DNA of 10,939 nucleotides from an uncultured Opitutaceae bacterium (GTDB taxonomy: Bacteria > Verrucomicrobiota > Verrucomicrobiae > Opitutales > Opitutaceae). The DNA lies in assembly GCA_946482625.1 (NCBI GenBank), contig CAMLSH010000078.1:1-10939 (forward strand), given 5' to 3'. Made by a program: the position numbers and the translations under genes. Below the pieces are notes generated by a model. The model saw only the letters and a list, made by a program, of their open reading frames with translations, did not search any database and was not told where the DNA came from. Within the stretch, counting starts at the first letter, position 1. Each line of letters opens with the position of its first letter. Of the stretch, positions 1 to 10,939 are shown one piece after another.

Positions 1-743
1 TTACTGTCGGACGTGGGCGTGCGTATCGAGAAACCGGTTTCACTGCCGAGGCCGATGGTGCCGAAGACCGCGGCCATGCCGGCGCCGGTGCCCGCGCTCG
101 ACCAGCCGGGAACGCGTTTGAGGTCGTAGGGGTTGAGCGTGCTGCCGCCGAGTGTGCTGGCGGCGGTGTTGGGTGGCTGGCCGTACCAGTCGGACTGATT
201 CAGCTTGGCGAGGATGACGCAGCCGGCTTCGCGGAGTTTTTTGATGATGAAGGCGTCCTTCGAAGGCTTCACGCCCTTGAGGGGAACGAAGCCGCCGGTG
301 GTGGGCATGTCGGCGGTGTCGAAGACATCTTTCGCGATTACGACGACGCCGTGAAGGGGACCGCGCGGGCCTTTGGTTTTGCGCTCGGCGTCGAGGGCGC
401 GGGCTTCGGCGAGGGCGTTGGGATTGAGGAAGAGGACGGAGGCGAGCTTCGGGCCTTTGGCGTCGTAGGCCTCGATGCGATTGATGTAGAGCTGCGTGAG
501 TTTTTCCGACGTGAGGGCGCCGGCGTTCATCGCGGCCTGGATGTCGGCGATGGTGGCGGAGGTCAGGTCGAACTGCGCGCCGCGCAGTTCGATTGAAATG
601 GCCAATGAGCAGTGACCAATGACCAAGGCGGCGACAGCTGAGAATGCTCGGCGCCGAACGCGAAATGCGGAGCGACGAAGAGACGGAGGCCACGCTTTAA
701 CAAGCGCGGCTACGTCGGAGGCGGCTGGGAGGGAGGCACACAT
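1..743 (-). CDS. Exported amidase signature-family enzyme, divergent type (3' part outside window; gene A)
   Basis: The first 247 residues are present; the rest lies beyond base 1. The ATG at 743 follows the TGA of the upstream gene after 6 bases, and the frame is open from there. Residues 1-55 form a basic, repeat-derived leader with a hydrophobic core around 36-50 (AALVIGHCSLA), probably cleaved before QFDL at about 57. The AS core follows. The catalytic Lys is K138 (AKDVFDT), the cis-Ser is S215 (GWSSAGTG) and the nucleophile is S239 (ETGFSIR), with the family's 24-residue spacing between serines. The family hydrolyses carboxamides; the substrate here is unknown. The Gly just before the nucleophile is Phe (F238), and KDN is KDV. 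The motif LNQSDWYG is shared only with the gene at 6112-7803, so these two form a divergent pair. No Shine-Dalgarno motif precedes the start. Confidence 0.93.
   Translation of the reverse strand, partial: MCASLPAASDVAALVKAWPPSLRRSAFRVRRRAFSAVAALVIGHCSLAISIELRGAQFDLTSATIADIQAAMNAGALTSEKLTQLYINRIEAYDAKGPKLASVLFLNPNALAEARALDAERKTKGPRGPLHGVVVIAKDVFDTADMPTTGGFVPLKGVKPSKDAFIIKKLREAGCVILAKLNQSDWYGQPPNTAASTLGGSTLNPYDLKRVPGWSSAGTGAGMAAVFGTIGLGSETGFSIRTPTSDS
595..626 (-). repeat. Heptanucleotide repeat encoding the leader core of gene A
   Basis: On the minus strand four degenerate 7-base units follow each other: TCATTGG, TCACTGC, TCATTGG and CCATTTC. They encode LVIGHCSLAIS, the hydrophobic core of the export leader of gene A. 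Near-copies occur at 2341, 7640 and 9360, always in the same reading frame. Confidence 0.85.
690..714 (-). repeat. 25-base imperfect palindrome in the leader of gene A
   Basis: The plus strand reads CCACGCTT, a 4-base loop, then AAGCGCGG and CTACG. The arms pair with one mismatch. The minus strand encodes VAALVKAW (residues 11-18 of gene A). The other two minus-strand frames contain stops in this copy (TAG, TAA). Copies are at 4156, 7738 and 9458. Confidence 0.8.
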
Positions 744-749
744 GGTGGA

Positions 750-2507
750 TCAGTAGGTGATGGTGTCGGAGGCGAGGGCTGGCGTGTTCTTGGGGAGGAC
801 GATGGCTTTTGTCGCCTGCTCGAAGTCGTAGCCGTAGCTGAGGAGCTTGGGCTCGCTCCAGGCGGGGCCGAAGAAGGAGATCGCGACGGGGAGGCCGTCT
901 TTGGTCATGCCCGCGGGGACGATGAGGTCGGGGAAGCCGGTGAAGTTCGCGAAGCTCGTGGCGGAGTCGGTGCCGGCCGAAGGCTTGGGTGGCGTGGCTG
1001 GGACAATCAACGTCGCGGGACGCGGCGAGGTCGGGTAGACGATGGCGTCGAGTTTATCCTTGGCGAAGATCGCGAGGATGCCGGCTTTCACGGCGACGAG
1101 CTGCTCGTTCTTCAACGCGAGGTACTGCGGATCGGTGAGCTCCAGGGCACGGGTCTGATTGTACTTCAGACCGAAAGCCTTCCCGGGGCTGCGGTAGTTG
1201 GTTTTTGGATCGTTGGAGAGCGTGACGAGGTCGTCGTAGCTCTTCGGGTAGCCGGGCTTCGTCGTCTTGAGGTACTCGGTCACCTGCGCCTTGAACTCGG
1301 CCATGACGAGCATGTTGTAGACCGACTGTTTTCCCTGGATCAGGTAGTCGGGATATTTGATCGGATCGATGACGGTGGCACCGAGTTTCTTGAGAGTGGC
1401 GACCGTTTCGTTGACCACACGATCGACCTCCGGGTCTTTGCCGGTGAAGTCGCGGGCGATGCCGATGCGAGCGCCTTTGAGCGAGCCGGTTTTGAGGAAC
1501 TTGGTGTAGTCGGTTTCGAATTTGCCCTTGGAGGCTGCGGTGGCCTGGTCGGCTTTATCGACGCCGGTCATGACGCCGAGTGAGAGGGCGACATCGTACA
1601 CGCTGCGAGCCATGGGTCCGGCGGTGTCGTAACTGAGTGCGAGCGGGATAATGCCGTCGCGGCTCATCAGACCGCAGGTGGGCTTGAGGCCGACGATGCC
1701 GTTGGCGGTGGAGGGACCGCGGACGGAGCCGCCGGTGTCGGTGCCGATGCCCATCTGGGCAAAGGCCGCGGCGATGGCTGCACCGGTGCCACCGGAGGAG
1801 CCGGAAGGGCCGCGGGTGAGGTCGTGCGGATTGAGCGTCTGACCGCCGGCCGAGCTGAAGCCGTTGGGAACCATGCCGGCTTTCAACACTTCTGGATCGG
1901 TAGCGCCGCTGACACTACCGCCGCTGCCGGCCCATTCGCTGAGGTTCACCTTGGCGAGGATGATGGCGCCACCCTCGCGCAGTTTTTTGGTGATGAAGGC
2001 GTCGTCGGGTGGGAGCGATCCTTCGAGCATCTGCGAGCCGCCGGTGGTGGGCAGGTCGAAGGTGTCGACGTTGTCCTTGAGGACGACGGGGATGCCGTGG
2101 AGCGGGCCGCGGATTTTCCCGGCCTTGCGCTCGGCGTCGAGGGCCTTGGCTTCGTCGAGAGCTTTGGAGTTGAGCGTGATGATCGCGTTGATCGCGGGAC
2201 CGCTCTTTTCGTAGGCGGCGATGCGTGCGAGGTAGCGCTCAGTCAGTTTCTCCGAGGAGAGCGCACCGGTTTTTATCGCGGCCTGGATTTCGGCGACGGT
2301 TGCGGTGGCGAGGTTGAGCTCGGCGGCGTTCAGCTTCGCTGAAGTGACCAATGAACAGTGACCAATGACCAGTGCAGCGAGCAGCGTCTTGGCGAGACGG
2401 CGGAAACGAGGAGAACGCTCAACGTTCAACGCTGAACGCTTAACGCTCAACGTGGAGAGGTATATGGACGACATGGAGACGGTGGTTTGGCGGGAGACGG
2501 TGGTCAT
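750..2507 (-). CDS. Exported amidase signature-family enzyme, peptide-amidase-like (gene B)
   Basis: A complete gene of 585 residues. The amidase core starts at about residue 63 (ELNLATAT). K144 (LKDNVDT), S237 (GPSGSSGG) and S261 (TDTGGSVRGPS) make an intact Lys/cis-Ser/Ser triad. Relative to the genes at 4244 and 7808 it has an insertion of about 18 residues between Lys and cis-Ser, after the SEWAG motif. That motif resembles the SEWA motif of Stenotrophomonas peptide amidase as I remember it, so it may act on peptide or amino-acid amides; this is inference. The leader contains two different heptanucleotide repeats: residues 19-32 are charged, and residues 42-56 form the hydrophobic core (LLAALVIGHCSLVTS). 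The chosen start at 2507 is 7 bases past the upstream stop; an ATG at 2474 is an alternative that shortens only the leader. The C-terminus is atypical (LASDTITY rather than LPGExxxY). The closest paralogue in the window is at 9522-10939. Confidence 0.95.
   Translation of the reverse strand: MTTVSRQTTVSMSSIYLSTLSVKRSALNVERSPRFRRLAKTLLAALVIGHCSLVTSAKLNAAELNLATATVAEIQAAIKTGALSSEKLTERYLARIAAYEKSGPAINAIITLNSKALDEAKALDAERKAGKIRGPLHGIPVVLKDNVDTFDLPTTGGSQMLEGSLPPDDAFITKKLREGGAIILAKVNLSEWAGSGGSVSGATDPEVLKAGMVPNGFSSAGGQTLNPHDLTRGPSGSSGGTGAAIAAAFAQMGIGTDTGGSVRGPSTANGIVGLKPTCGLMSRDGIIPLALSYDTAGPMARSVYDVALSLGVMTGVDKADQATAASKGKFETDYTKFLKTGSLKGARIGIARDFTGKDPEVDRVVNETVATLKKLGATVIDPIKYPDYLIQGKQSVYNMLVMAEFKAQVTEYLKTTKPGYPKSYDDLVTLSNDPKTNYRSPGKAFGLKYNQTRALELTDPQYLALKNEQLVAVKAGILAIFAKDKLDAIVYPTSPRPATLIVPATPPKPSAGTDSATSFANFTGFPDLIVPAGMTKDGLPVAISFFGPAWSEPKLLSYGYDFEQATKAIVLPKNTPALASDTITY
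2341..2373 (-). repeat. Heptanucleotide repeat encoding the leader core of gene B
   Basis: The units on the minus strand are TCATTGG, TCACTGT, TCATTGG and TCACTTC. They encode LVIGHCSLVTS, residues 46-56 of gene B. The flank AGCTTCGCTGAAGT on the plus strand is shared with gene F. Confidence 0.85.
2416..2453 (-). repeat. Second heptanucleotide repeat, different unit, in gene B
   Basis: The plus strand has five contiguous 7-base units: CGCTCAA, CGTTCAA, CGCTGAA, CGCTTAA and CGCTCAA, then CGT. Read on the minus strand they encode the basic, mixed stretch TLSVKRSALNVE (residues 19-30) ahead of the hydrophobic core of gene B. It takes the place that the 25-base palindrome has in genes A, C, E and F. 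Confidence 0.9.
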
Positions 2508-2514
2508 GAATGGG

Positions 2515-4239
2515 TCAGTAGGAGAAGGATTCGCCGGGGAGGGCGGGGGTGGAGGCGGGTGCCACGATGGCGTGGGTGGCTTGCTCGAAGGCGTAGGCGT
2601 AGCCGAGCAGGCGGGCTTCGCTGAAGGCGTCGCCGATGAAGGAGAGCGTCACCGGTAGTTTGTTCTTGGTGACGCCGGCGGGAACGATGACGTCGGGGAA
2701 GCCGGAGAAGTTCGCGAGGCTGGTGCCGGACTCGGGCTGGGGCGCAGTGTAGTCGCGTTTGAGCGGGAGCGCAGGCTTGGGCGACGTCGGATAGATGAAG
2801 GCATCGAGCTTCTGGTTTTTGAGAATGCCTCCGAGTGTGTCCCGGATCAGAGCCAGGCCGTGATCGCGGGCGGCGAGGTATTCGGGATCGTCGAGCGAGC
2901 GGCCTTTCTCGGCTTCTTCGCGGAAGATTTCCCAACGGGCTTTGTTGGCGACGCCGGGTTTGCCGGAAGGATTTGCGAGGTATTCGTCGGCAAGTTTGAG
3001 GAGCTCGGCGTGGCTGCGGGGGAAGCCGGGCTTGAGAGTCTGGAGGTAGTCGGTGATCTGCGCTTTGAACTCGGCCATGCGCACGATGCTGAAGAGGCCC
3101 GAGCGGGCCTTGGTCAGGAAGTCAGGGAGCTTCACGTCGACGACGGTGGCGCCTTGGGCTTTGAGCGTGGCGATGGATTTTTCGATGACGGCATCGACCT
3201 CGGGATCGGCGCCCATGAACTCGCGGAGCACACCGAAGCGCGCGCCTTTGAGGGCGTCTTTTTTGAGGAACGCGGTAAAGTCTTCCGGGAGTTTTCCGGC
3301 GCTGGCGGCGGTTGCGGCGTCGCGAGGATCGGGGCCGGAAACGTAGTTCATCACGAGGGCGACGTCGTAGATGTTGCGCGCCATCGGGCCGCCGGTGTCG
3401 AAGGAGAGCGCGAGCGGAACGATGCCGGCGCGGGAGAGTGCGCCGATCGTGGGCTTCAGGCCGGGCGTGCCGTTGGCGGCGGACGGACCGCGGATGGAGC
3501 CGCCGGTGTCGCTGCCGAACGCGAGCGGGGCGAACCAGGCGGCGAGCGCGGCGCCGGAGCCGCCGGAGGAACCGGCGGGGCCGCGGGTGAGGTCGTGCGG
3601 GTTGAGCGTTTGTCCGCCGAGGGAACTGAAGCCGTTGGATTTTCCGCTGAGGGCGAACTCGCTCGTGTTGGCTTTCGCGAGAACGATGGCGCCGGCGGCG
3701 CGGAGCTTTTCGACGACGAATGAATCCCGGAAAGGAACGGAGCCGGCGAGGAAGACGCAGCCGGCGGTGGTGGGCAGATCGGCGGTGTCGTAATTATCTT
3801 TGAGGATGACGGGAATGCCGTGGAGGGCGGAGCGTGGGCCTTTGGCTTTGCGTTCGGCGTCGAGCGCGCGGGCCTCGGCGAGCGCGTTCGGATTGAGCGT
3901 GATGACGGTGTTTAGTGCGGGGCCTTGTTTGTCGTAGGCCTCGATGCGTGCGAGGTAGAGGGTGACGAGTTTTTCGGAAGAGAGTGCGCCCGCTTCGATG
4001 GCGGCATTGATGTCGGCGATGCTGGCCTTGCTCAGGTCGAACTGGGCGGCGGGAGCGGTGCTCGCCGCGAATAACCAACAGCCAACGCCGAACGCCCAAC
4101 GTCGAAGGACGGACGGAAGAAGCGGGCGGGGGGCCGATGTGTCCGGGGACGGAGACCACGCTTTGACAAGCGCGGCTACGTTAGGACGCGCGACTACGCT
4201 GGAGCGAACGAGCGCGGCAGAGCGATGGCGTGTATGCAT
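2515..4239 (-). CDS. Exported amidase signature-family enzyme (gene C)
   Basis: This gene encodes 574 residues from the ATG at 4239, which lies 4 bases after the TGA of the upstream gene. The frame is open 89 codons further up to 4506, but that stretch overlaps the conserved C-terminus of the upstream amidase and reads as a Ser/Pro/Arg-rich shadow, so I rejected the longer start. The leader (about 1-65) has basic residues LRR at 45-47, a hydrophobic core (WAFGVGCWLFAAS) and a likely cleavage at APA before AQFDL. The triad is intact: K147 (LKDNYDT), S224 (GPAGSSGG) and S248 (SDTGGSIRGPS). Its Lys to cis-Ser segment (TSEFALSGKSNGFSS) differs from both the SEWAG and DEFA types, so it looks like a fourth type in this array. 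The tail is STPALPGESFSY. It probably belongs to the unit D-C-B-A. The substrate is unknown. Confidence 0.95.
   Translation of the reverse strand: MHTRHRSAALVRSSVVARPNVAALVKAWSPSPDTSAPRPLLPSVLRRWAFGVGCWLFAASTAPAAQFDLSKASIADINAAIEAGALSSEKLVTLYLARIEAYDKQGPALNTVITLNPNALAEARALDAERKAKGPRSALHGIPVILKDNYDTADLPTTAGCVFLAGSVPFRDSFVVEKLRAAGAIVLAKANTSEFALSGKSNGFSSLGGQTLNPHDLTRGPAGSSGGSGAALAAWFAPLAFGSDTGGSIRGPSAANGTPGLKPTIGALSRAGIVPLALSFDTGGPMARNIYDVALVMNYVSGPDPRDAATAASAGKLPEDFTAFLKKDALKGARFGVLREFMGADPEVDAVIEKSIATLKAQGATVVDVKLPDFLTKARSGLFSIVRMAEFKAQITDYLQTLKPGFPRSHAELLKLADEYLANPSGKPGVANKARWEIFREEAEKGRSLDDPEYLAARDHGLALIRDTLGGILKNQKLDAFIYPTSPKPALPLKRDYTAPQPESGTSLANFSGFPDVIVPAGVTKNKLPVTLSFIGDAFSEARLLGYAYAFEQATHAIVAPASTPALPGESFSY
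4071..4105 (-). repeat. Heptanucleotide repeat encoding the leader core of gene C
   Basis: The plus strand has five contiguous units: ATAACCA, ACAGCCA, ACGCCGA, ACGCCCA and ACGTCGA. On the minus strand they encode most of LRRWAFGVGCWLF, the basic patch and hydrophobic core of the leader of gene C. The unit differs from the TCATTGG type, but the period and position are the same. Confidence 0.85.
4156..4180 (-). repeat. 25-base imperfect palindrome in the leader of gene C
   Basis: The arms are CCACGCTT and AAGCGCGG around TGAC, followed by CTACG. It encodes VAALVKAW (residues 21-28) on the minus strand. A shorter degenerate echo (GCGCGACTACG) follows at about 4188-4198. Confidence 0.8.
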
Positions 4240-4243
4240 GAGA

Positions 4244-5842
4244 TCAGTACTCGAATTTTTCGCCGGGGAGCGCCGGCGTCGTCGAAGGCGACACGCGGTG
4301 CTTCGTCGCTTGTTCGTACGCGTAGGCGTAGGCGAGCAGCTTGGGTTCGGAGAAGGCGGGGCCGAAGAAGGAGAGCGTGACGGGCATCTTGTTATCCTTC
4401 GTGAGACCGGCGGGGACGATGACGTCGGGAAACTGGGTGACGTTGGCGATGCTCGTGAGCGAAGGCGGGCCGACCCGGTCAACGATCTCGGGTGTCTTGG
4501 GATCAATGAGCTCGGGCTGGCGCGAGCGCGTCGGGTAGACGAGCGCGTCGAGCTGATTGTCTTCTATGAGGCCGAGGACGGCGTCGCGGACGGCGAGCAT
4601 ACCGTAATTCTTGGCGGAGGTGTAGGTGAGCGACGTGATCGGCGGGCCTTCGCTCATGCGTTTGAAGCGCGTGAAGACGCTCGGGTGCGGGAGGAATTTT
4701 CCTTTGGGCGCTGTGAGCGCGAGGCCTTTCTCGGCGAGCTCGCCTTGCGTTTTCGGGAATCCGGGGCGGACCGTGGCGAGATACGCGGCGTAGTTTTCAC
4801 GGACTTCCGACATACGGATCGGCTCCATCACGACGGGGCGGTTTTGGAGGGCGATGGCGGGGAAGTGGACGGGATCGACGAGGATCGCGCCCTGGGCTTT
4901 GAGCTCTTCGAGAGCTGCGTTGAAGACGCGATCCACTTCAGGATCGGTGCCGGCGTAATCGCGGATCACGCCGAGGCGGACGCCCTTGAGCGCGTCCTTT
5001 TTGAGAAACTGTGTGTAGTCTTTGAAGTAGAGGCCGGCGCTGGTGCGGGTGAGGGGATCGGCGGGGTCGACGCCGGTCATAAAGCCGAGCGAGAGGGCAA
5101 CGTCATAGACGGTGCGCGCCATGGGGCCGCCTGTATCGAACGTCAGGACACACGGCATGATGCCGGTGCGGGAGAGCAGGCCGTTGGTCGGTTTGATGCC
5201 GACGATGCCGTTGGCCGAAGACGGGCCGCGGATCGAGCCGCCGGTGTCGGAGCCGAGGCCGAGCGGAGCGAACCAGGCGGCGAGGCCGGCGCCGGTACCG
5301 CCGGAAGAACCGGCGGGATGGCGGCGGGGATCGTGGGGGTTGCGGGTTTGTCCGTCGCGTGAACTGAAGCCGATGCCGCCGTGGGCGAATTCGTCCATGT
5401 TTACCTTGGCGAGCATGATCGCGCCGGCGTCGCGCAGGTTTTTGATCATGGGCGCGTCCTTGTACGGGATGGCTCCGTCGAGGAGGAACGTGCCGCCGGT
5501 GGTGGGCAGGTCGAAGGTGTCGTAGTTGTCCTTTACGAGGACGGGAATGCCGTGGAGCGGGCCACGCGGGCCTTTGGCTTTGCGCTCGGCGTCGAGTGCG
5601 CGGGCTTCGGCGAGCGCGTTCGGGTTGAGCGTGATGACCGTGTTTAGCTTCGGTCCCTTCTGGTCGTAAGCTTCGATACGCGCGAGGTAGAGCGTGACCA
5701 GTTTCTCGTAGGAGAGGGCGCCGCTGGCGACGGCCTCTTGAATATCTGGAATCGAGGCGGTCTCGAGGTCGAACGTCCGGGCGTGGACGGAGGAGGCCAG
5801 CAATGATGCGGCGAGAACGGCGAGGAACGGTTTGAGTCGCAT
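4244..5842 (-). CDS. Exported amidase signature-family enzyme with classical signal peptide (gene D)
   Basis: This gene encodes 532 residues from the ATG at 5842. An in-frame ATG at 5905 would add 21 residues, but the internal start gives a textbook signal peptide: MRLK, a core FLAVLAASLLASS and the cleavage site VHA before RTFDL at residue 22. The enzyme is therefore probably periplasmic or secreted. The AS triad is complete: K104 (VKDNYDT), S179 (HPAGSSGG) and S203 (SDTGGSIRGPS). The spacings of 75 and 24 residues match those of fatty acid amide hydrolase (142/217/241). It closely resembles the gene at 7808-9517, sharing VTQFPDVIVPAG and the tail TTPALPGEKFxY. It is the first gene after a probable terminator, so it should head the unit D-C-B-A and need its own promoter. 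It lacks the repeat-derived leader seen in five other members. No Shine-Dalgarno motif is visible upstream. Confidence 0.96.
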   Translation of the reverse strand: MRLKPFLAVLAASLLASSVHARTFDLETASIPDIQEAVASGALSYEKLVTLYLARIEAYDQKGPKLNTVITLNPNALAEARALDAERKAKGPRGPLHGIPVLVKDNYDTFDLPTTGGTFLLDGAIPYKDAPMIKNLRDAGAIMLAKVNMDEFAHGGIGFSSRDGQTRNPHDPRRHPAGSSGGTGAGLAAWFAPLGLGSDTGGSIRGPSSANGIVGIKPTNGLLSRTGIMPCVLTFDTGGPMARTVYDVALSLGFMTGVDPADPLTRTSAGLYFKDYTQFLKKDALKGVRLGVIRDYAGTDPEVDRVFNAALEELKAQGAILVDPVHFPAIALQNRPVVMEPIRMSEVRENYAAYLATVRPGFPKTQGELAEKGLALTAPKGKFLPHPSVFTRFKRMSEGPPITSLTYTSAKNYGMLAVRDAVLGLIEDNQLDALVYPTRSRQPELIDPKTPEIVDRVGPPSLTSIANVTQFPDVIVPAGLTKDNKMPVTLSFFGPAFSEPKLLAYAYAYEQATKHRVSPSTTPALPGEKFEY

Positions 5843-6111
5843 GGCGTGGTGAAGGAGTTGCACGCAAAGCGGAAACAGGGCCGGCCACGGGACTAAAACA
5901 GGCACCTGGGGCGAATTGAAAAGTTAGATACGCCGTTTGGGTGGACTTGAATAAAACTGAACGACCTCCGGCTCGATGAGAGCGGGAGGTCGACCGGCGG
6001 AGTGGGATTCCGGGTTGGGGTGACTTCGCGATGGACCAGGCGGGCGATCGTGGAACGGCCCGCGGGAGGAGTCCAGTCGAGCGGTCCTCGCGTCTGCGCG
6101 GAGGAGCGGGA
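5843..6111. other. Intergenic gap between genes E and D
   Basis: This is the only non-coding stretch longer than 7 bases in the window. It holds the probable terminator of the upstream unit, and the promoter and 5' leader of gene D would have to lie between the terminator and 5843. On the minus strand an AT-richer patch at about 5910-5960 contains a poor -10-like hexamer (TATCTA, 5925-5930) with TTCAAG (5946-5951) 15 bases upstream. The match to sigma-70 consensus is too weak to call a promoter. I see no tRNA, riboswitch or other gene in it, and none of the heptad or palindrome repeats that occur in the neighbouring leaders. Confidence 0.7.
5950..5992 (-). terminator. Probable intrinsic terminator after gene E
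   Basis: Read on the minus strand, CGACCTCC pairs with GGAGGTCG. After one C/C mismatch, GCTC pairs with GAGC around the 5-base loop TCATC (5962-5992). The stem is immediately followed by TTCAGTTTTATT. A 12-pair GC-rich hairpin with a T-rich tail, 120 bases past the stop codon of gene E, fits a Rho-independent terminator that separates G-F-E from D-C-B-A. The T-tract is interrupted, so read-through is possible. Confidence 0.7.
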
Positions 6112-7803
6112 TCAGTAGTCGAATTTTTCTCCGGGCAGCGACGGCGTGGAGGCGGGGGCTTTGCGGTGTTGGGTGGCGGCCTCGAAGCCGCTGCCGAGTT
6201 TGATGAGCGTGGGCTCGGAGAATTTGCGGCCGAGAAGATGGACGCCGAAGGGCATGCCGTCGCTGGGAGTGAAGCCGGCGGGGACGACGAGCGTCGGAAA
6301 GCCGGTCGAGGAGTGCAGGTGGTTGCGCACGGAGCGGCGCTGCCAGCCACCGCCGGCGGGCGGGTTGGCAACTTCGTCGGCGAGCAGCGTGCGGTTGGGA
6401 TAGATGAGGGCGTCGAGCTGGTATTTATCCATCAACGACTGAAGCGCGTCGCGCATGGCGGCTTGCTGGCGATAGACGGCGGCGAGCGCCGGGAGATGGT
6501 CGAGTTTTCCGCGGAGTTTCGCCGTTTCGACGATGGCGGGTTTTACGAGGGCGCCGCCTTTGGCGATCATCTCGTCGACGGAGCGGATGGGCGCGGTGGC
6601 GGGGAGACCGGCGAGATATGCGTCGATCGCGGTGGCGCGTTCGAAGTCGGCGGTATCGGCGTCGTTTTGCATACCGACGAGATCGAGGCCGGTGAGGACG
6701 GGATCGACGATGACGGCGCCGGCTTTCTTGAAATCGGCGACGGCCTTTTCGAAGAGCACGTTGCCCTCTTCGTGACCGGGACCACTGCGGACCATTTCGC
6801 GGAGGACACCGATGCGGGCGCCCTTGAGGCCGTCTTTGTCGACGAAGCTCGAATACGGGACGTCCGGGATTTTTCCGATGCTGTCCTGCGTGGGAAGATC
6901 GGCGGGGTCGTAGCCGGCGATAACGTCGAGGACGACGGCGGTGTCGTAGACGCTACGCGTCATCGGGCCGCCGCTTTCCTGCGCGGGCGAGCTCCACATC
7001 ATGCCGGTGCGCGAAACGAGGCCGTGGGTCGCGGTCATGCCGGCGAGGCTGTTGAGATTGGTGGGATTGGTGACGGAGCCGGTAGTGTCGCTGCCGAGCC
7101 CGATGGTGGCGAACCACGCGCCCATGGCGGCGCCGGTGCCGGAGCTGGAGCCGCCGCCGACTTTGGCGGGGTTGTAGGGGCTGATGACGCGGCCCTTGAG
7201 GGTGCCGCCGCCGTTTTTTCCAACGCCATACCAGTCGGCTTGGTTCAACTTGCCGAAGATGATCGCGCCGGCGGCGCGGAGCCTTGCGATGACGAACGCA
7301 TCGCGCGACGGCTGGGAGAACTCCATCGGCTTGAAGTTGCCGGTGGTGGGCATGTCGAAGGTGTCGAACACATCCTTCGCGAGCACGGGAATGCCGTGGA
7401 GAGGAGAGCGCGGGCCTTTGGTTTTGCGCTCGGCGTCGAGGGCGCGGGCGATTTCGAGCGCCTTGGGATTGAGCGTGATGATCGCGTTAAGTGCGGGTCC
7501 TTTTTGGTCGTAGGCCTCGATACGGGCGAGGTAGAGTTGGACAAGTTTCTCCGAGGTGAGTGCGCCGGAATCGAAGGCGGCGTTGATGTCGGCGATGGAC
7601 GCGGTGGCCAGATCGAATTGCGCTGCGCGCAGTTCGACTGAAGTGCTCAATGAGCAATGACCAATGACCAGTGCGAGAAGGGCCCCGCGCACGGAGAAGC
7701 CGGGCCGGAGGAACGCCGGTGCTCTCAAGGATGGGGGCCACGCTTTAGCACGCGCGGCTACGGCGGAGGGGCGAAGCACGGTAGAGAGGAGGCGGATGTA
7801 CAT
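6112..7803 (-). CDS. Exported amidase signature-family enzyme, divergent type (gene E)
   Basis: This gene encodes 563 residues from the ATG at 7803, 4 bases after the upstream TGA. A GTG at 7692 (V38) would give a signal peptide of ordinary length (RGALLALVIGHCSLSTS, cleaved near LRA before AQFDL) and is a serious alternative start. The triad is present: K143 (AKDVFDT), S219 (GGGSSSGTG) and S243 (SDTTGSVTNPT). Its surroundings differ from the canonical members. KDN is KDV, the Gly two residues before the nucleophile is Thr, and the following R-G-P is T-N-P. The otherwise conserved IKPT becomes MTAT, and FDT before GGPM becomes QES. It shares LNQxDWYG with the gene at 1-743. Activity is plausible, but specificity probably differs from the TGGSxRGP members. 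The tail is STPSLPGEKFDY. It is last in the unit G-F-E, followed by the terminator at 5950-5992. Confidence 0.94.
   Translation of the reverse strand: MYIRLLSTVLRPSAVAARAKAWPPSLRAPAFLRPGFSVRGALLALVIGHCSLSTSVELRAAQFDLATASIADINAAFDSGALTSEKLVQLYLARIEAYDQKGPALNAIITLNPKALEIARALDAERKTKGPRSPLHGIPVLAKDVFDTFDMPTTGNFKPMEFSQPSRDAFVIARLRAAGAIIFGKLNQADWYGVGKNGGGTLKGRVISPYNPAKVGGGSSSGTGAAMGAWFATIGLGSDTTGSVTNPTNLNSLAGMTATHGLVSRTGMMWSSPAQESGGPMTRSVYDTAVVLDVIAGYDPADLPTQDSIGKIPDVPYSSFVDKDGLKGARIGVLREMVRSGPGHEEGNVLFEKAVADFKKAGAVIVDPVLTGLDLVGMQNDADTADFERATAIDAYLAGLPATAPIRSVDEMIAKGGALVKPAIVETAKLRGKLDHLPALAAVYRQQAAMRDALQSLMDKYQLDALIYPNRTLLADEVANPPAGGGWQRRSVRNHLHSSTGFPTLVVPAGFTPSDGMPFGVHLLGRKFSEPTLIKLGSGFEAATQHRKAPASTPSLPGEKFDY
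7640..7672 (-). repeat. Heptanucleotide repeat encoding the leader core of gene E
   Basis: The units on the minus strand are TCATTGG, TCATTGC, TCATTGA and GCACTTC. They encode LVIGHCSLSTS (residues 45-55). The repeat is part of a 123-base leader block copied in gene F. Confidence 0.85.
7693..7730 (-). repeat. 38-base GC-rich element shared by the leaders of E and F
   Basis: This element contains small inverted CCGG-type arms around a short loop and ends in GCTCTCAAGG on the plus strand. It matches 9413-9450 at 35 of 38 positions by hand count. On the minus strand it encodes LRAPAFLRPGFS in gene E. Confidence 0.75.
7738..7762 (-). repeat. 25-base imperfect palindrome in the leader of gene E
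   Basis: This copy is slightly diverged (CCACGCTTTAGCACGCGCGG then CTACG). It encodes VAARAKAW (residues 15-22) in the same frame as the other three copies. Confidence 0.75.
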
Positions 7804-7807
7804 GTGA

Positions 7808-9517
7808 TCAGTAGTCGAATTTTTCGCCGGGGAGGGCGGGGGTGGTCGACGGGGAGACGCGGTGCGGGAAGGCCTGCTCGTACGCGTAGGCGTAAGCGAG
7901 CATGCGCGCCTCGCTGTAAGCGGGGCCCAGGAAGGAGAGCGTGACCGGTAGTTTATTTTCGGTGACGCCGGCGGGAACGATCACATCGGGAAACTGGGTG
8001 ACGTTGGCGATGGCGGTGAGCGACTGGTTGGCGTTTCCCTTGGGGATGTAGGTCGCGATGTTCGGATTGAGCGGGTCGGGGCGTTTGGGGCGGGTGGGGT
8101 AGACGATGGCGTCGAGCTGGTGTTTTTCGAAAATGCCGAGGACGGCGGTGCGCACCATGGCCATGCCGTGTTCTTTGGCGGCTTTGTAGGTGAGCGAGGT
8201 GGACGGCTCGCCGGCGTTGTCGATTTTGAAGCGGGCCCAGATGGCGGGGTAGGGGCGGAGCTTGCCGCGCGGTTCGGTGAAGGCATCGGCGCGCTCGATC
8301 ATCTCGGTGAGCGTGCGCGGGTAGTCGCCTTTGAGTGTGGCGAAGTATTTGGCGTAGTCTTCGCGAACGTCGGCGCCGCGGACGATGTCCATCACGGCAG
8401 CGCGGCCCTCGGTGACCATCGCGGGGTAGTGAAGATCGTCGATGATGATGGCGCCGGCGGATTTGAGTTCGGCGACGGCGGCGTTGAAGACCTTGTCCAC
8501 TTCAGGGTCGAGGCCGCTGAGATCGCGGATTACGCCGAGGCGGGCGCCCTTCAGTGCGTCTTTTTTCAGGAAAGGCGTGTAGTCCTTGAGGAAGAGGCCG
8601 GCGCTGGTTTGCGTGAGCGGGTCCTTTGGATCGACACCGGTCATGTAGCCGAGTGAGAGGGTGACGTCGGCGATGGTGCGGGCCATGGGGCCGCCTGTAT
8701 CGAAAGTCAGGACACGCGGGATGATGCCGGAGCGGGAGAGCAGGCCGTTGGTGGGTTTGATGCCGGGGACGCCGTTGGCGGAGGAAGGGCCTCGGATGGA
8801 GCCGCCGGTGTCGGTGCCGAGACCGAGCGGGGCGAACCAGGCGGCGAGGCCGGCGCCGGTGCCGCCAGAGGAACCGGAGGGACCGTGATTGAGGTTGTGC
8901 GGATTTTTCGTTTGTCCGCCCACGGAGCTGAAGCCGGTGCCGGCGGTGGCGAATTCGTCGAGGTTCGCTTTGGCGAGGAAGATCACGCCGGCGTCGCGCA
9001 GGCCCTTGATCATGGGAGCGTCGGTCGCGGGCATGTTATCCACGAGGAGGAACGAGCCGCCGGTGTTGAGCATGCCGACGACGTCGTAGTTGTCCTTCAC
9101 GAGGACGGGGATGCCGTGGAGCGGGGAGCGGCGACCTTTGGTTTTGAACTCGGCGTCCAGGGCGCGGGCTTCCTCGATGGCCTTCGGGTTGATCGTGATG
9201 ATCGCGTTTATCGCCGGGCCCTTCTGGTCGTAGGCCCCGATGCGGGCGAGGTAGAGTTTGACGAGTTTCTCGTAGGTGAGCGCGCCAGCATCGACGGCGG
9301 CCTGGATTTCGGCGACGCCGGCTTTTTCGAGTTCGAAGGTGGCGGCGGTCAGCTTCGCTGAAGTGGCCAATGCACAGTGACCAATGACCAGTGCGAGAAG
9401 GGCTGTGCGCAAGGAGAAGCCCGGCCGGCGGGACGCCGGTGCTCTCAAGGTCGGGAGCCACGCTTCAACAAGCGCGGCTACGTGACGAAGCGGAGCTGCG
9501 TGAGAGAGACAGGTCAT
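7808..9517 (-). CDS. Exported amidase signature-family enzyme (gene F)
   Basis: This gene encodes 569 residues from the ATG at 9517, 4 bases after the upstream TGA. A TTG at 9412 (L36) would give a shorter leader of classical length. The leader hydrophobic core is LLALVIGHCALATSA (about 40-54), and the mature part starts around TFELEKAG (60-67). The triad is intact: K141 (VKDNYDV), S216 (GPSGSSGG) and S240 (TDTGGSIRGPS), spaced 75 and 24. It is the close paralogue of the gene at 4244-5842, sharing DEFA, the motif YMTGVDP/FMTGVDP, VTQFPDVIVPAG and the tail TTPALPGEKFDY. Its leader, however, is nearly the same as that of gene E, a different type. The reaction should be amide hydrolysis outside the cytoplasm; the substrate is unknown. 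Confidence 0.96.
   Translation of the reverse strand: MTCLSHAAPLRHVAALVEAWLPTLRAPASRRPGFSLRTALLALVIGHCALATSAKLTAATFELEKAGVAEIQAAVDAGALTYEKLVKLYLARIGAYDQKGPAINAIITINPKAIEEARALDAEFKTKGRRSPLHGIPVLVKDNYDVVGMLNTGGSFLLVDNMPATDAPMIKGLRDAGVIFLAKANLDEFATAGTGFSSVGGQTKNPHNLNHGPSGSSGGTGAGLAAWFAPLGLGTDTGGSIRGPSSANGVPGIKPTNGLLSRSGIIPRVLTFDTGGPMARTIADVTLSLGYMTGVDPKDPLTQTSAGLFLKDYTPFLKKDALKGARLGVIRDLSGLDPEVDKVFNAAVAELKSAGAIIIDDLHYPAMVTEGRAAVMDIVRGADVREDYAKYFATLKGDYPRTLTEMIERADAFTEPRGKLRPYPAIWARFKIDNAGEPSTSLTYKAAKEHGMAMVRTAVLGIFEKHQLDAIVYPTRPKRPDPLNPNIATYIPKGNANQSLTAIANVTQFPDVIVPAGVTENKLPVTLSFLGPAYSEARMLAYAYAYEQAFPHRVSPSTTPALPGEKFDY
9360..9392 (-). repeat. Heptanucleotide repeat encoding the leader core of gene F
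   Basis: The units on the minus strand are TCATTGG, TCACTGT, GCATTGG and CCACTTC. They encode LVIGHCALATS (residues 43-53). Confidence 0.85.
9413..9450 (-). repeat. 38-base GC-rich element, copy in gene F
   Basis: This is the partner of 7693-7730. The minus strand contains CCGGC, the loop GTCCC and GCCGG, a small perfect hairpin. It encodes LRAPASRRPGFS in gene F. Confidence 0.75.
9458..9482 (-). repeat. 25-base imperfect palindrome in the leader of gene F
   Basis: The arms are CCACGCTT and AAGCGCGG around CAAC, followed by CTACG. It encodes VAALVEAW (residues 13-20). A neighbouring frame contains TGA, so only the used frame reads through. Confidence 0.8.
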
Positions 9518-9521
9518 AAAA

Positions 9522-10939
9522 TCAGTAGGTGATGGTGTCGCCGGGGAGGAGCGGGGTGTGTTTGGGGAGTTTTCGGGCGGCGGTGGCCTGTTCGAAATCG
9601 TAGCCGTAGCTCAGGAGTTTTCCTTCGCTGAAGGCGGGGCCGAAGAAGGAGATGGCCACAGGCAGGCCATCCTTGGTCATACCGGCGGGGATGATCAGGT
9701 CGGGGAAGCCGGTGTGGTTGGCGATGCGCGTGGGAGATTCACTGGAGCCGCCGATGCCGGTGCCAGCGCCGGCGATCACCGTGGCGGGGCGCGGAGCGGT
9801 GGGATAGACGAGTGCGTCGAGTGCGTACTTCTTGAATACGGCCATCATGGTGGCGCGCATAAGGGCGAGGCCCTCGTTTTTGGCGGCGAGATAGACGGGA
9901 TCGTCGATACTGACGACGGACGAGGCGGCCCATTTCAGGCCGACGGCTTTGCCGGGACTGCGGTAGCCCGTGGCGGGGTCGTTGGCGAGGCGGGCGAGGT
10001 CGTCGATGGATTTTGGGTACTTGGGGCCGGTGGTCTTGAGGTACTGGCCGATCTGGGCGGGAAACTCGGCGGCGCGGATTTCCTTGGAGAGGTTGTCTTT
10101 GGCGCGGAGGAAAAACTCGGGGAGCGGGACGGGATCGACGACGATGGCGCCCTGTTTTTTCAGAGCGGCGACGGCTTCGTTGAAGACGCGCACGGTCTCG
10201 GGATCGCCGTTGGTGAAGTCGCGAGCGACGCCGATGCGGGCTCCTTTGAGGGAGCCGGTTTTGAGGAAGGCGGTGTAGTCCTTCTCGATCTTGCCGGTGC
10301 TCTTTTGGGTGGCGTCGTCGGCGAGATCGACGCCAGTCATGACGTTGAGAGAGACGGCGATGTCGTAGACGTTGCGGGCCATGGGGCCAGCGGTGTCGAA
10401 CGAGAGGACGAGCGGGACGATGCCATCGCGGGAGAGCAGACCATGCGTGGGCTTGAGGCCGACGATGCCGTTGGCGGCGGACGGGCCGCGGACGGAGCCG
10501 CCGGTGTCGGTGCCGAGGCCGAATTGTGCGAAGGAGGCGGCGATGGCGGAGCCGGTGCCGCCGGAAGAACCGGCGGGGCCGCGCGTAGTGTCGTGGGGGT
10601 TACGTGTCTGGCCGCCCATGGAGCTGGCGCCGTTGGGGATGAAGCCGGCTTTGACGATGTCGGGTGGCGCGCCTTCGGTGCTGCCACCACCGCCGGCCCA
10701 TTCGGAGAGGTTGACCTTGGCGACGATGATGGCGCCGGCGGCGCGGAGTTTTTTGACGACGTAGGCGTCGTCGGGAGGGAGGGAGCCTTCGAGGAGTTGA
10801 GAGCCTGCGGTGGTGGGGAGATCGACGATGTCGAAGTTATCCTTGAGGACGATCGGGATGCCGTGGAGAGGGCCGCGGATTTTTCCGGCTTTGCGTTCGG
10901 CATCGAGGGCTTTGGCCTCGGCGAGGGCCTTGGGGTTGA
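9522..10939 (-). CDS. Amidase signature-family enzyme, peptide-amidase-like (5' part outside window; gene G)
   Basis: The C-terminal 471 residues are present. The frame is open to the right edge, so the Met at 10619 is internal and not the start. By alignment with the gene at 750-2507 about 112 N-terminal residues, including any signal peptide, are missing. Numbered from the first full codon in the window, the triad is K32 (LKDNFDI), S124 (GPAGSSGG) and S148 (TDTGGSVRGPS). The 92-residue Lys to cis-Ser interval and the SEWAG motif match gene B (93 residues), as do DPxTxYRSPGKAxGLK and FTGFPDL/HTGFPDL near the C-terminus. The tail is HTPLLPGDTITY. It is the first gene seen of the unit G-F-E. 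Its promoter lies outside the window or further upstream. Confidence 0.95.
   Translation of the reverse strand, partial: NPKALAEAKALDAERKAGKIRGPLHGIPIVLKDNFDIVDLPTTAGSQLLEGSLPPDDAYVVKKLRAAGAIIVAKVNLSEWAGGGGSTEGAPPDIVKAGFIPNGASSMGGQTRNPHDTTRGPAGSSGGTGSAIAASFAQFGLGTDTGGSVRGPSAANGIVGLKPTHGLLSRDGIVPLVLSFDTAGPMARNVYDIAVSLNVMTGVDLADDATQKSTGKIEKDYTAFLKTGSLKGARIGVARDFTNGDPETVRVFNEAVAALKKQGAIVVDPVPLPEFFLRAKDNLSKEIRAAEFPAQIGQYLKTTGPKYPKSIDDLARLANDPATGYRSPGKAVGLKWAASSVVSIDDPVYLAAKNEGLALMRATMMAVFKKYALDALVYPTAPRPATVIAGAGTGIGGSSESPTRIANHTGFPDLIIPAGMTKDGLPVAISFFGPAFSEGKLLSYGYDFEQATAARKLPKHTPLLPGDTITY

What the first reader, a model, noticed from the sequence alone, without database searches (positions are those of the whole stretch)
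595..9392. Heptanucleotide repeats supply the hydrophobic core of amidase export signals
In genes A, B, E and F (595-626, 2341-2373, 7640-7672, 9360-9392) the same degenerate TCATTGG-type heptad array encodes LVIGHCSL and variants, in the same frame each time, exactly where a signal peptide needs its hydrophobic stretch. Heptanucleotide tandem repeats are known as dispersed, mostly intergenic elements (for example the STRR repeats of cyanobacteria). Here such a repeat seems to have become a functional protein segment several times, or once and then spread. The core stays coding even if downstream GTG/TTG starts are used.
Basis: partly seen in the sequence, partly recalled or inferred. Interest (0 to 1): 0.75.

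Follow-up and report, generated by a model that had tools for sequence, protein, structure and literature searches.

The report
Signal peptides built from DNA heptads
In a bacterium related to the Opitutaceae, seven-letter DNA repeats appear to have been turned several times into the greasy core of export signals on a row of amidase enzymes, helped by the fact that a seven-letter repeat reads as the same peptide in every reading frame of one strand.

Summary
The four TCATTGG-type arrays lie in the leaders of amidase genes A, B, E and F (4 matches; 200 shuffles give none). 'Same frame each time' is not evidence: a 7-nt repeat encodes one peptide, (SLVIGHW)n, in all three frames of one strand and a stop in all three of the other. 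The leaders are probably translated: in 5 of 5 the ATG lies 4-7 nt behind the upstream stop. Body trees scatter A, B, E, F among relatives without this array, so the cores came after the paralogs split, repeatedly or by leader exchange. In the close relative G008, gene A's mature DNA is 92% identical but its signal core is another heptad array. In sampled relatives the arrays are not an export device as such: they also sit in 5' gaps and, in sense, inside cytosolic enzymes. Export is untested.

The parts
597..626 (-). TCATTGG-type heptad array of gene A, coding LVIGHCSL
2343..2374 (-). TCATTGG-type heptad array of gene B, coding LVIGHCSLV
2408..2460 (-). second heptad array of gene B (GCGTTRA type), coding the basic stretch LSVKRSALNVERS before the core
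   Evidence: same module in two G008 amidase leaders
7640..7672 (-). TCATTGG-type heptad array of gene E, coding LVIGHCSL
9360..9393 (-). TCATTGG-type heptad array of gene F, coding LVIGHCAL
   Evidence: 17/28 at shift 7
579..743 (-). leader of gene A (55 codons; ATG 6 nt after the stop of B)
2325..2507 (-). leader of gene B (61 codons; ATG 7 nt after the stop of C)
4048..4239 (-). leader of gene C (64 codons; ATG 4 nt after the stop of D)
5780..5842 (-). ordinary signal peptide of gene D (no array), internal control
7624..7803 (-). leader of gene E (60 codons; ATG 4 nt after the stop of F)
9344..9517 (-). leader of gene F (58 codons; ATG 4 nt after the stop of G)
682..715 (-). 34-nt repeated element in leader A (codes VAALVKAWPPS)
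   Evidence: family D15
4148..4181 (-). 34-nt repeated element in leader C
   Evidence: family D15
7730..7763 (-). 34-nt repeated element in leader E
   Evidence: family D15
9450..9483 (-). 34-nt repeated element in leader F
   Evidence: family D15
7701..7730 (-). stretch shared by leaders E and F (codes LRAPA..RPGF)
   Evidence: E-F 5' flank identity 0.80-0.90
9421..9450 (-). stretch shared by leaders E and F
3..743 (-). amidase gene A (cut by the window end)
750..2507 (-). amidase gene B (PF01425)
2515..4239 (-). amidase gene C (PF01425)
4244..5842 (-). amidase gene D (PF01425)
6112..7803 (-). amidase gene E (PF01425)
7808..9517 (-). amidase gene F (PF01425)
9522..10937 (-). amidase gene G (cut by the window end)

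Best explanation
Short imperfect 7-nt arrays are a dispersed repeat class in part of the Opitutaceae. Because 7 and 3 share no factor, a TCATTGG array reads as the same mildly hydrophobic peptide (SLVIGHW)n in all three frames of one strand, and carries a TGA in all three frames of the other. An array that lands or grows in sense in a tolerant stretch of a gene therefore never closes the reading frame and can be kept whatever its phase, as long as the total insert is a multiple of three. In this tandem amidase operon such arrays, with neighbouring residues (ALLA-, -AKLxAA), have replaced the hydrophobic core of the signal peptide in A, B, E and F (TCATTGG type) and C (CGTTGGG type), after the paralogs had diverged, by repeated capture plus exchange of leader segments between genes. 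Shown: arrays, frames, tree positions, unlike heptad cores on near-identical gene A of two genomes, start codons close behind upstream stops. Inferred: translation in the cell, export, and the capture and recombination steps.
For: Arrays beyond chance and confined to leaders. Frame logic. In 5 of 5 long leaders the ATG lies 4-7 nt behind the upstream stop and the frame is open to the mature part; 101-160 of 20,000 shuffled spacers per gene do that. Best hydrophobic 11-mer 2.04-2.44 in 12 array leaders (in some it is partly flanking residues) against median 2.44 (5-95%: 1.93-2.91) in 111 other family leaders and 1.25 in mature pieces; net charge before it +2 to +6. Body trees: B with L007_p11636, E with L007_p13295, F with EW11 L001_p9692, whose leaders look ordinary; EW11 has no match to the two array patterns. 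Among 122 rows (best 120 of 817 F homologs, plus D and F of the window) 11 have heptad-like leaders, 8 changes on a quick body tree. Gene A: mature DNA 529/576 identical to G008 L236_m11125, leader 27/93 right-aligned, while D's leader is 51/63; the G008 A core is another period-7 array (21/28; 0 of 5000 shuffles). Three further G008 amidases carry a TCATTGG core. Leader blocks shared across unlike bodies: array 82-94%, E-F 5' flank 0.80-0.90, bodies 0.57-0.73. In IleS a heptad-coded segment is aligned and varying in 4 of 10 genomes.
Against: No experiment and no SignalP-type predictor. The leader of F outside the core changes fast (6 of 58 residues against 1 of 511 in the mature part, F against P0001), which fits weak constraint and leaves open a later start. 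The two gene A leaders keep a weak local similarity (15 of 2000 shuffles reach it), so fast decay of a common leader is not excluded. In relatives many arrays near gene starts lie before the likely start codon. Scattered array leaders could be fewer gains plus losses. My gene caller is home-made and leaders were judged by eye or by a pattern made after seeing them.
Confidence: 0.7

Rival explanations
1. The arrays are only untranslated spacer repeats. True starts lie at or behind the array and the long open leaders are chance in GC-rich DNA.
For: In relatives many arrays sit in 5' gaps before an ATG; period-7 tracts are densest in the 150 nt upstream of genes in three of four sampled genomes (not in G004); the F leader outside the core changes fast.
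Against: Start codons 4-7 nt behind the upstream stop in 5 of 5 leaders; without the array A, B, E and F would lack most of the hydrophobic core that the ordinary homologs show; P0002, P0006, P0013 and P0037 are predicted with a Met only 11-22 residues before the same or nearly the same core.
Confidence: 0.16
2. One ancestral amidase had the array leader; the paralogs inherited it, and relatives lost it.
For: Array plus about 25 nt of 3' flank are alike in all four genes (family D13).
Against: The nearest relatives of B, E and F in the body trees have ordinary-looking leaders; 5' flanks of A, B and E/F are unalike (0.23-0.44); many parallel losses would be needed.
Confidence: 0.08
3. The arrays are phase-variation switches: slippage by one unit shifts the frame and turns export on or off.
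For: Unit length is not a multiple of three, so gain or loss of a unit would shift the downstream frame. Heptamer phase variation in other bacteria is recalled; PMC8262952 was seen in a listing only.
Against: Arrays here have about 2-4 imperfect units by the repeat finder, which should slip rarely (recalled); all five complete genes are in frame.
Confidence: 0.07
4. The arrays are kept for a DNA- or RNA-level role near gene starts (protein binding or translation control), and coding is a side effect.
For: Sense bias in gaps between codirectional genes: 16:3, 16:3 and 31:1 in G119, G137 and G008; MacGregor proposes such a role for TAACTGA repeats (PMC4679880, abstract).
Against: G004 shows 9:9; internal inserts in IleS and UvrA; in G008 gene direction, GC skew and array strand coincide, so the bias may come from replication or transcription direction.
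Confidence: 0.12

Closest known systems
[quoted passage not shown] known here through passages of PMC10969869)
   Same: Dispersed repeat present in frame in unrelated genes
   Different: RPE are ~150-bp palindromes coding a conserved peptide; these are 7-nt arrays that read alike in every frame of one strand
TAACTGA heptamer direct repeats of Beggiatoaceae, Cyanobacteria and Bacteroidetes (MacGregor 2015, PMC4679880; abstract, outline and sections 9 and 15 read)
   Same: 7-nt direct repeats, in one genome mostly just upstream of starts; stops in one orientation, open heptapeptide in the other; some inside ORFs, mostly near protein ends, one at the start of a permease
   Different: Other unit; no signal-peptide use and no turnover between orthologs in the sections I read
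Enterobacterial repeat units RU-1/2/3 in coding genes (Delihas 2007, PMC2759123; abstract and passages)
   Different: 103-168-bp MITE-like units and few such cases; here short heptads, repeated in one gene family
Cyanobacterial STRR heptanucleotide repeats
   Same: Dispersed short 7-nt tandem repeats
   Different: Not tested here; unit sequences not compared

Membership tests
Sec-type signal peptide | Basic n-region, hydrophobic core, small residues before the mature part | tested here: met
   hydropathy and charge within the range of other family leaders; ends RGA, NAA, PAA, RAA, TAA in A, B, C, E, F at a boundary set by hand. n-regions are unusually long if the coupled ATG is used
Sec-type signal peptide | Directs export and is cleaved | not testable with these tools
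   no experiment; no trained predictor
Rickettsia palindromic elements | ~150-bp palindromic element with a conserved encoded peptide | tested here: not met
   arrays of 7-nt units, 23-32 nt here and 21-154 nt in relatives; it works like an RPE but is not one
Rickettsia palindromic elements | In-frame presence in unrelated genes | tested here: met
   G119 IleS, UvrA, kinase, helicase and others (gene names by eye)
TAACTGA heptamer repeats | Unit TAACTGA / TCAGTTA | tested here: not met
   units are of TCATTGG, CGTTGGG and GCGTTRA type
TAACTGA heptamer repeats | One orientation closed in all frames, the other open | tested here: met
   for TCATTGG and TCATTCG; not for GCGTTGG, which is open on both strands
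Cyanobacterial STRR | Unit sequences of the described STRR families | not tested
   original description not seen
Amidase signature family PF01425 | Pfam match above gathering score | tested here: met
   B, C, D, E, F 247-337 bits against a cut-off of 27; A and G were not scanned, placed by alignment and tree only

The most novel reading that the evidence does not exclude
Heptad arrays are a general, frame-blind source of new signal peptides: different heptad types act as interchangeable modules (basic GCGTTRA array as n-region; TCATTGG, CGTTGGG or TCTGGCN array as core), so that orthologous exported enzymes in close relatives carry unrelated, freshly assembled export signals on nearly identical mature proteins.
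Probability: 0.37. Interest if true: 0.8.

Novelty: new variant of a known kind. Interest (0 to 1): 0.63.

Why it matters
Signal peptides evolve fast and their origin is rarely visible. Here the source is still readable: a dispersed 7-nt repeat whose arithmetic keeps it open in every frame of one strand. That gives a concrete, testable route by which non-coding repeats become functional protein segments, a caution for gene callers (starts may be extended through arrays), and a natural set of replaced leaders on near-identical enzymes for export assays.

Tried and rejected
A protein search with the window's own F leader found only P0001; E-values against 5.8 billion sequences are harsh for a short core. 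The shared frame of the four cores was dropped as evidence. A first tree missed most EW11 paralogs because of a crude filter; replaced. Counting small residues at the cleavage site of the homologs was dropped: my automatic boundary was off by a residue or two. The 34-nt VAALVKAW element gave 1 hit in 252 family genomes at 3 mismatches (G008) and no exact match in 212 loci; the E/F element none in 212 loci. Strand-following in G008 could not be separated from gene direction. (G194) and the G236 part (5 forward, 13 reverse) were not analysed further. Phase variation was considered and ranked low.

Results against my reading: G004 31 of 31 arrays intergenic by midpoint, 9:9 orientation; 5 antisense in-gene arrays in G137 (3 at gene ends, 2 internal, each beside a sense array). 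Many hits look like over-extended gene starts on cytosolic proteins, which inflates the 76 of 113 N-terminal positions (21 expected by length). Ten unselected G008 stretches (120 kb) hold 1 period-7 tract and 1 at shift 8. The two gene A leaders keep weak similarity.

The G008 strand table given to Fisher was miscounted; recounted it is 39:3 and 2:21 (p 7e-12). For the first of these I lowered the two odds slightly (0.72 to 0.70; 0.40 to 0.37) and raised the spacer rival from 0.15 to 0.16.
Full report
WHAT IS THERE. The window holds seven head-to-tail amidase-type genes on the minus strand: A and G cut by the window ends, B-F complete (PF01425 for B, C, D, E, F). Tandem Repeats Finder and a core-pattern search confirm the four arrays in the leaders of A, B, E and F; four matches are found where 200 dinucleotide shuffles give none. 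A scan that assumes no unit sequence (self-matches at shift 7, at least 19 of 28) finds five tracts, all in leaders, which make up 957 of 10,939 nt. Shifts 4, 5, 8, 10, 11, 13 and 15 give none; shifts 6, 9, 12 and 14 give 1, 5, 1 and 2. Two of the five are new: a CGTTGGG-type array that is the signal core of gene C, and a GCGTTRA-type array before the core of gene B. F falls below the threshold (17/28). D has an ordinary signal peptide.

THE FRAME ARGUMENT. A 7-nt unit repeated three times passes through all three frames. TCATTGG therefore encodes (SLVIGHW)n in any frame of one strand, and every frame of the other strand meets TGA. MacGregor made the same point for TAACTGA repeats (PMC4679880, sections 9 and 15).

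ARE THE LEADERS TRANSLATED? In A, B, C, E and F, 5 of 5, the ATG that opens the long leader (55-64 codons) stands 4-7 nt after the stop of the upstream gene, and the frame is open to the mature part; for each gene 101-160 of 20,000 shuffled spacers do that. This fits translational coupling; the five are not fully independent, since their leaders share pieces. D starts 269 nt after the upstream stop. The best hydrophobic 11-mer of 12 array leaders scores 2.04-2.44, inside the 5-95% range of 111 other leaders of the family (1.93-2.91) and above mature pieces (median 1.25, 2% reach 2.04); net charge before it is +2 to +6. Three homologs with leaders under 12 residues were left out. Between F and its homolog P0001 the leader differs at 6 of 58 residues, none in the core, and the mature part at 1 of 511.

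WHEN WERE THEY ACQUIRED? The mature parts of the window's paralogs are 57-73% identical in DNA. Gap-free, the array block is 82-94% identical in all pairs of A, B, E, F, while the 27 nt upstream are unalike (0.30-0.44) except in E-F (0.85); the 3' flank is alike in A-E (0.82) and B-F (0.76), 0.52-0.58 in the rest. On body trees F groups with EW11 L001_p9692, B with L007_p11636, E with L007_p13295 and D with EW11 L001_p6417; the leaders of these relatives look ordinary and EW11 has no match to the two array patterns. So the cores came after the paralogs split. Among the best 120 of 817 homologs of F plus D and F of the window, 11 of 122 have heptad-like leaders by a pattern I made after seeing them, needing 8 changes on a quick body tree; six groups (winF with P0001 and P0002; P0006; P0013; P0037; P0016 with P0019; P0065) are of the TCATTGG type, P0050 is of the CGTTGGG type and P0029 is doubtful. 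Gains and losses cannot be told apart with certainty.

THE CLOSE RELATIVE G008. G008 (unnamed, one 4,730,447-bp contig) is the closest held genome that I met: its ortholog of A is 183/192 identical over the part of the mature protein in the window and 529/576 in DNA, its ortholog of D 467/511 in protein and 1332/1533 in DNA. D's ordinary leader is 51/63 identical; A's is 27/93 right-aligned, with a weak best local match that 15 of 2000 shuffles reach. The G008 A core (LCLLASGLCLLP) is itself a period-7 array of another type (21/28; 0 of 5000 shuffles; shifts 5, 8, 10, 11 give 7-13). So the core was replaced, or decayed very fast. Three other G008 amidases, in other branches, carry a TCATTGG core (L236_m3541, L236_m12575, L235_m6202). 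Two of them and window gene B share the order basic GCGTTRA array, then TCATTGG core, with near-identical array DNA. This is the best evidence that leader pieces are reused.

RELATIVES AT LARGE. 60 of 150 family genomes match the array pattern within 2 mismatches; the reversed control is zero in most. I sampled arrays from four abundant genomes, with a home-made gene caller; the place lists were capped at 100 and not every listed place was fetched. In genes (by midpoint), sense:antisense was 0:0 (G004, 31 arrays), 20:0 (G119, 46), 28:5 (G137, 62) and 13:0 (G008, 46); in gaps between codirectional genes 9:9, 16:3, 16:3 and 31:1. By any overlap, 4 G004 arrays touch a gene end in antisense and 1 a gene start in sense. 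Of 61 sense in-gene arrays 24 lie in the first 150 nt and 37 further in. By eye 8 arrays are signal cores: 5 of those 24 (G119 L105:3595, L107:880, L107:2811; G137 L146:574, again LVIGHCSL; G008 L228:6397) and the three G008 amidases, which the caller had put in gaps. Many other N-terminal ones precede a likely later start. Arrays are also coding inserts in cytosolic genes: in IleS the segment SLVIGHWSLVIP of G119 lines up with SLVIGHSSLVIK, SSVIGQWSLVLP and ASIIGNWTAVVA in three relatives and with unlike sequence, four residues less at that place, in six. The class is therefore wider than export signals.

STRAND. In G008, 60 of 65 array ends follow one strand per half genome (39:3 and 2:21, Fisher p 7e-12; one further site near the contig end left out; reversed control 5 sites). 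Some sites are neighbours in one array. GC skew and gene direction switch at about the same places, so the cause is open.

KNOWN KINDS. In-frame repeats in genes are known from Rickettsia (PMC10969869 passages); heptamers in ORFs from Beggiatoaceae (PMC4679880); [quoted passage not shown] Searches listed no paper on heptad-derived signal peptides; they cover open-licence papers only and some lists were capped. I file this as a new variant of a known kind.

LIMITS. The window's genome is not held; its family is inferred from EW11 (77% identity) and G008. No SignalP-like program or experiment was available. Names for IleS, UvrA, kinase, helicase, BatA/VWA and the FlgI-like L228 gene are by eye and recall, not from a family search.

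Noticed in passing
G008 C1 (L214-L253): Array orientation follows one strand per half genome (39:3 and 2:21), together with GC skew and nearly total gene co-orientation; cause not separable here.
   Followed up: partly
L104, L106, L111 (G119); L158, L163, L168, L172, L180 (G137); L233 (G008): Arrays also occur as inverted pairs 22-187 nt apart, antisense first then sense, which could form a hairpin.
   Followed up: no
L125:201-3092 and L129 (G119): IleS and UvrA (names by eye) carry in-frame heptad inserts; an IleS one lines up with varied forms in three relatives.
   Followed up: partly
window 682-715, 4148-4181, 7730-7763, 9450-9483: A 34-nt element recurs in the leaders of A, C, E, F; 1 hit in 252 family genomes at 3 mismatches.
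   Followed up: partly
P0127, P0130, P0131, P0142, P0144, P0165, P0169, P0185: Proteins with PF13231 (membrane glycosyltransferase type) that hold heptad-coded peptide inside the chain next to hydrophobic stretches.
   Followed up: no
P0150, P0177 and others: Proteins that look cytosolic (MutL, RecF by source name) with a heptad-coded N-terminal extension, probably gene calls extended through an array.
   Followed up: no
L085, L091, L097, L099 (G004): Antisense arrays overlap the last codons of genes and may supply the stop codon.
   Followed up: no
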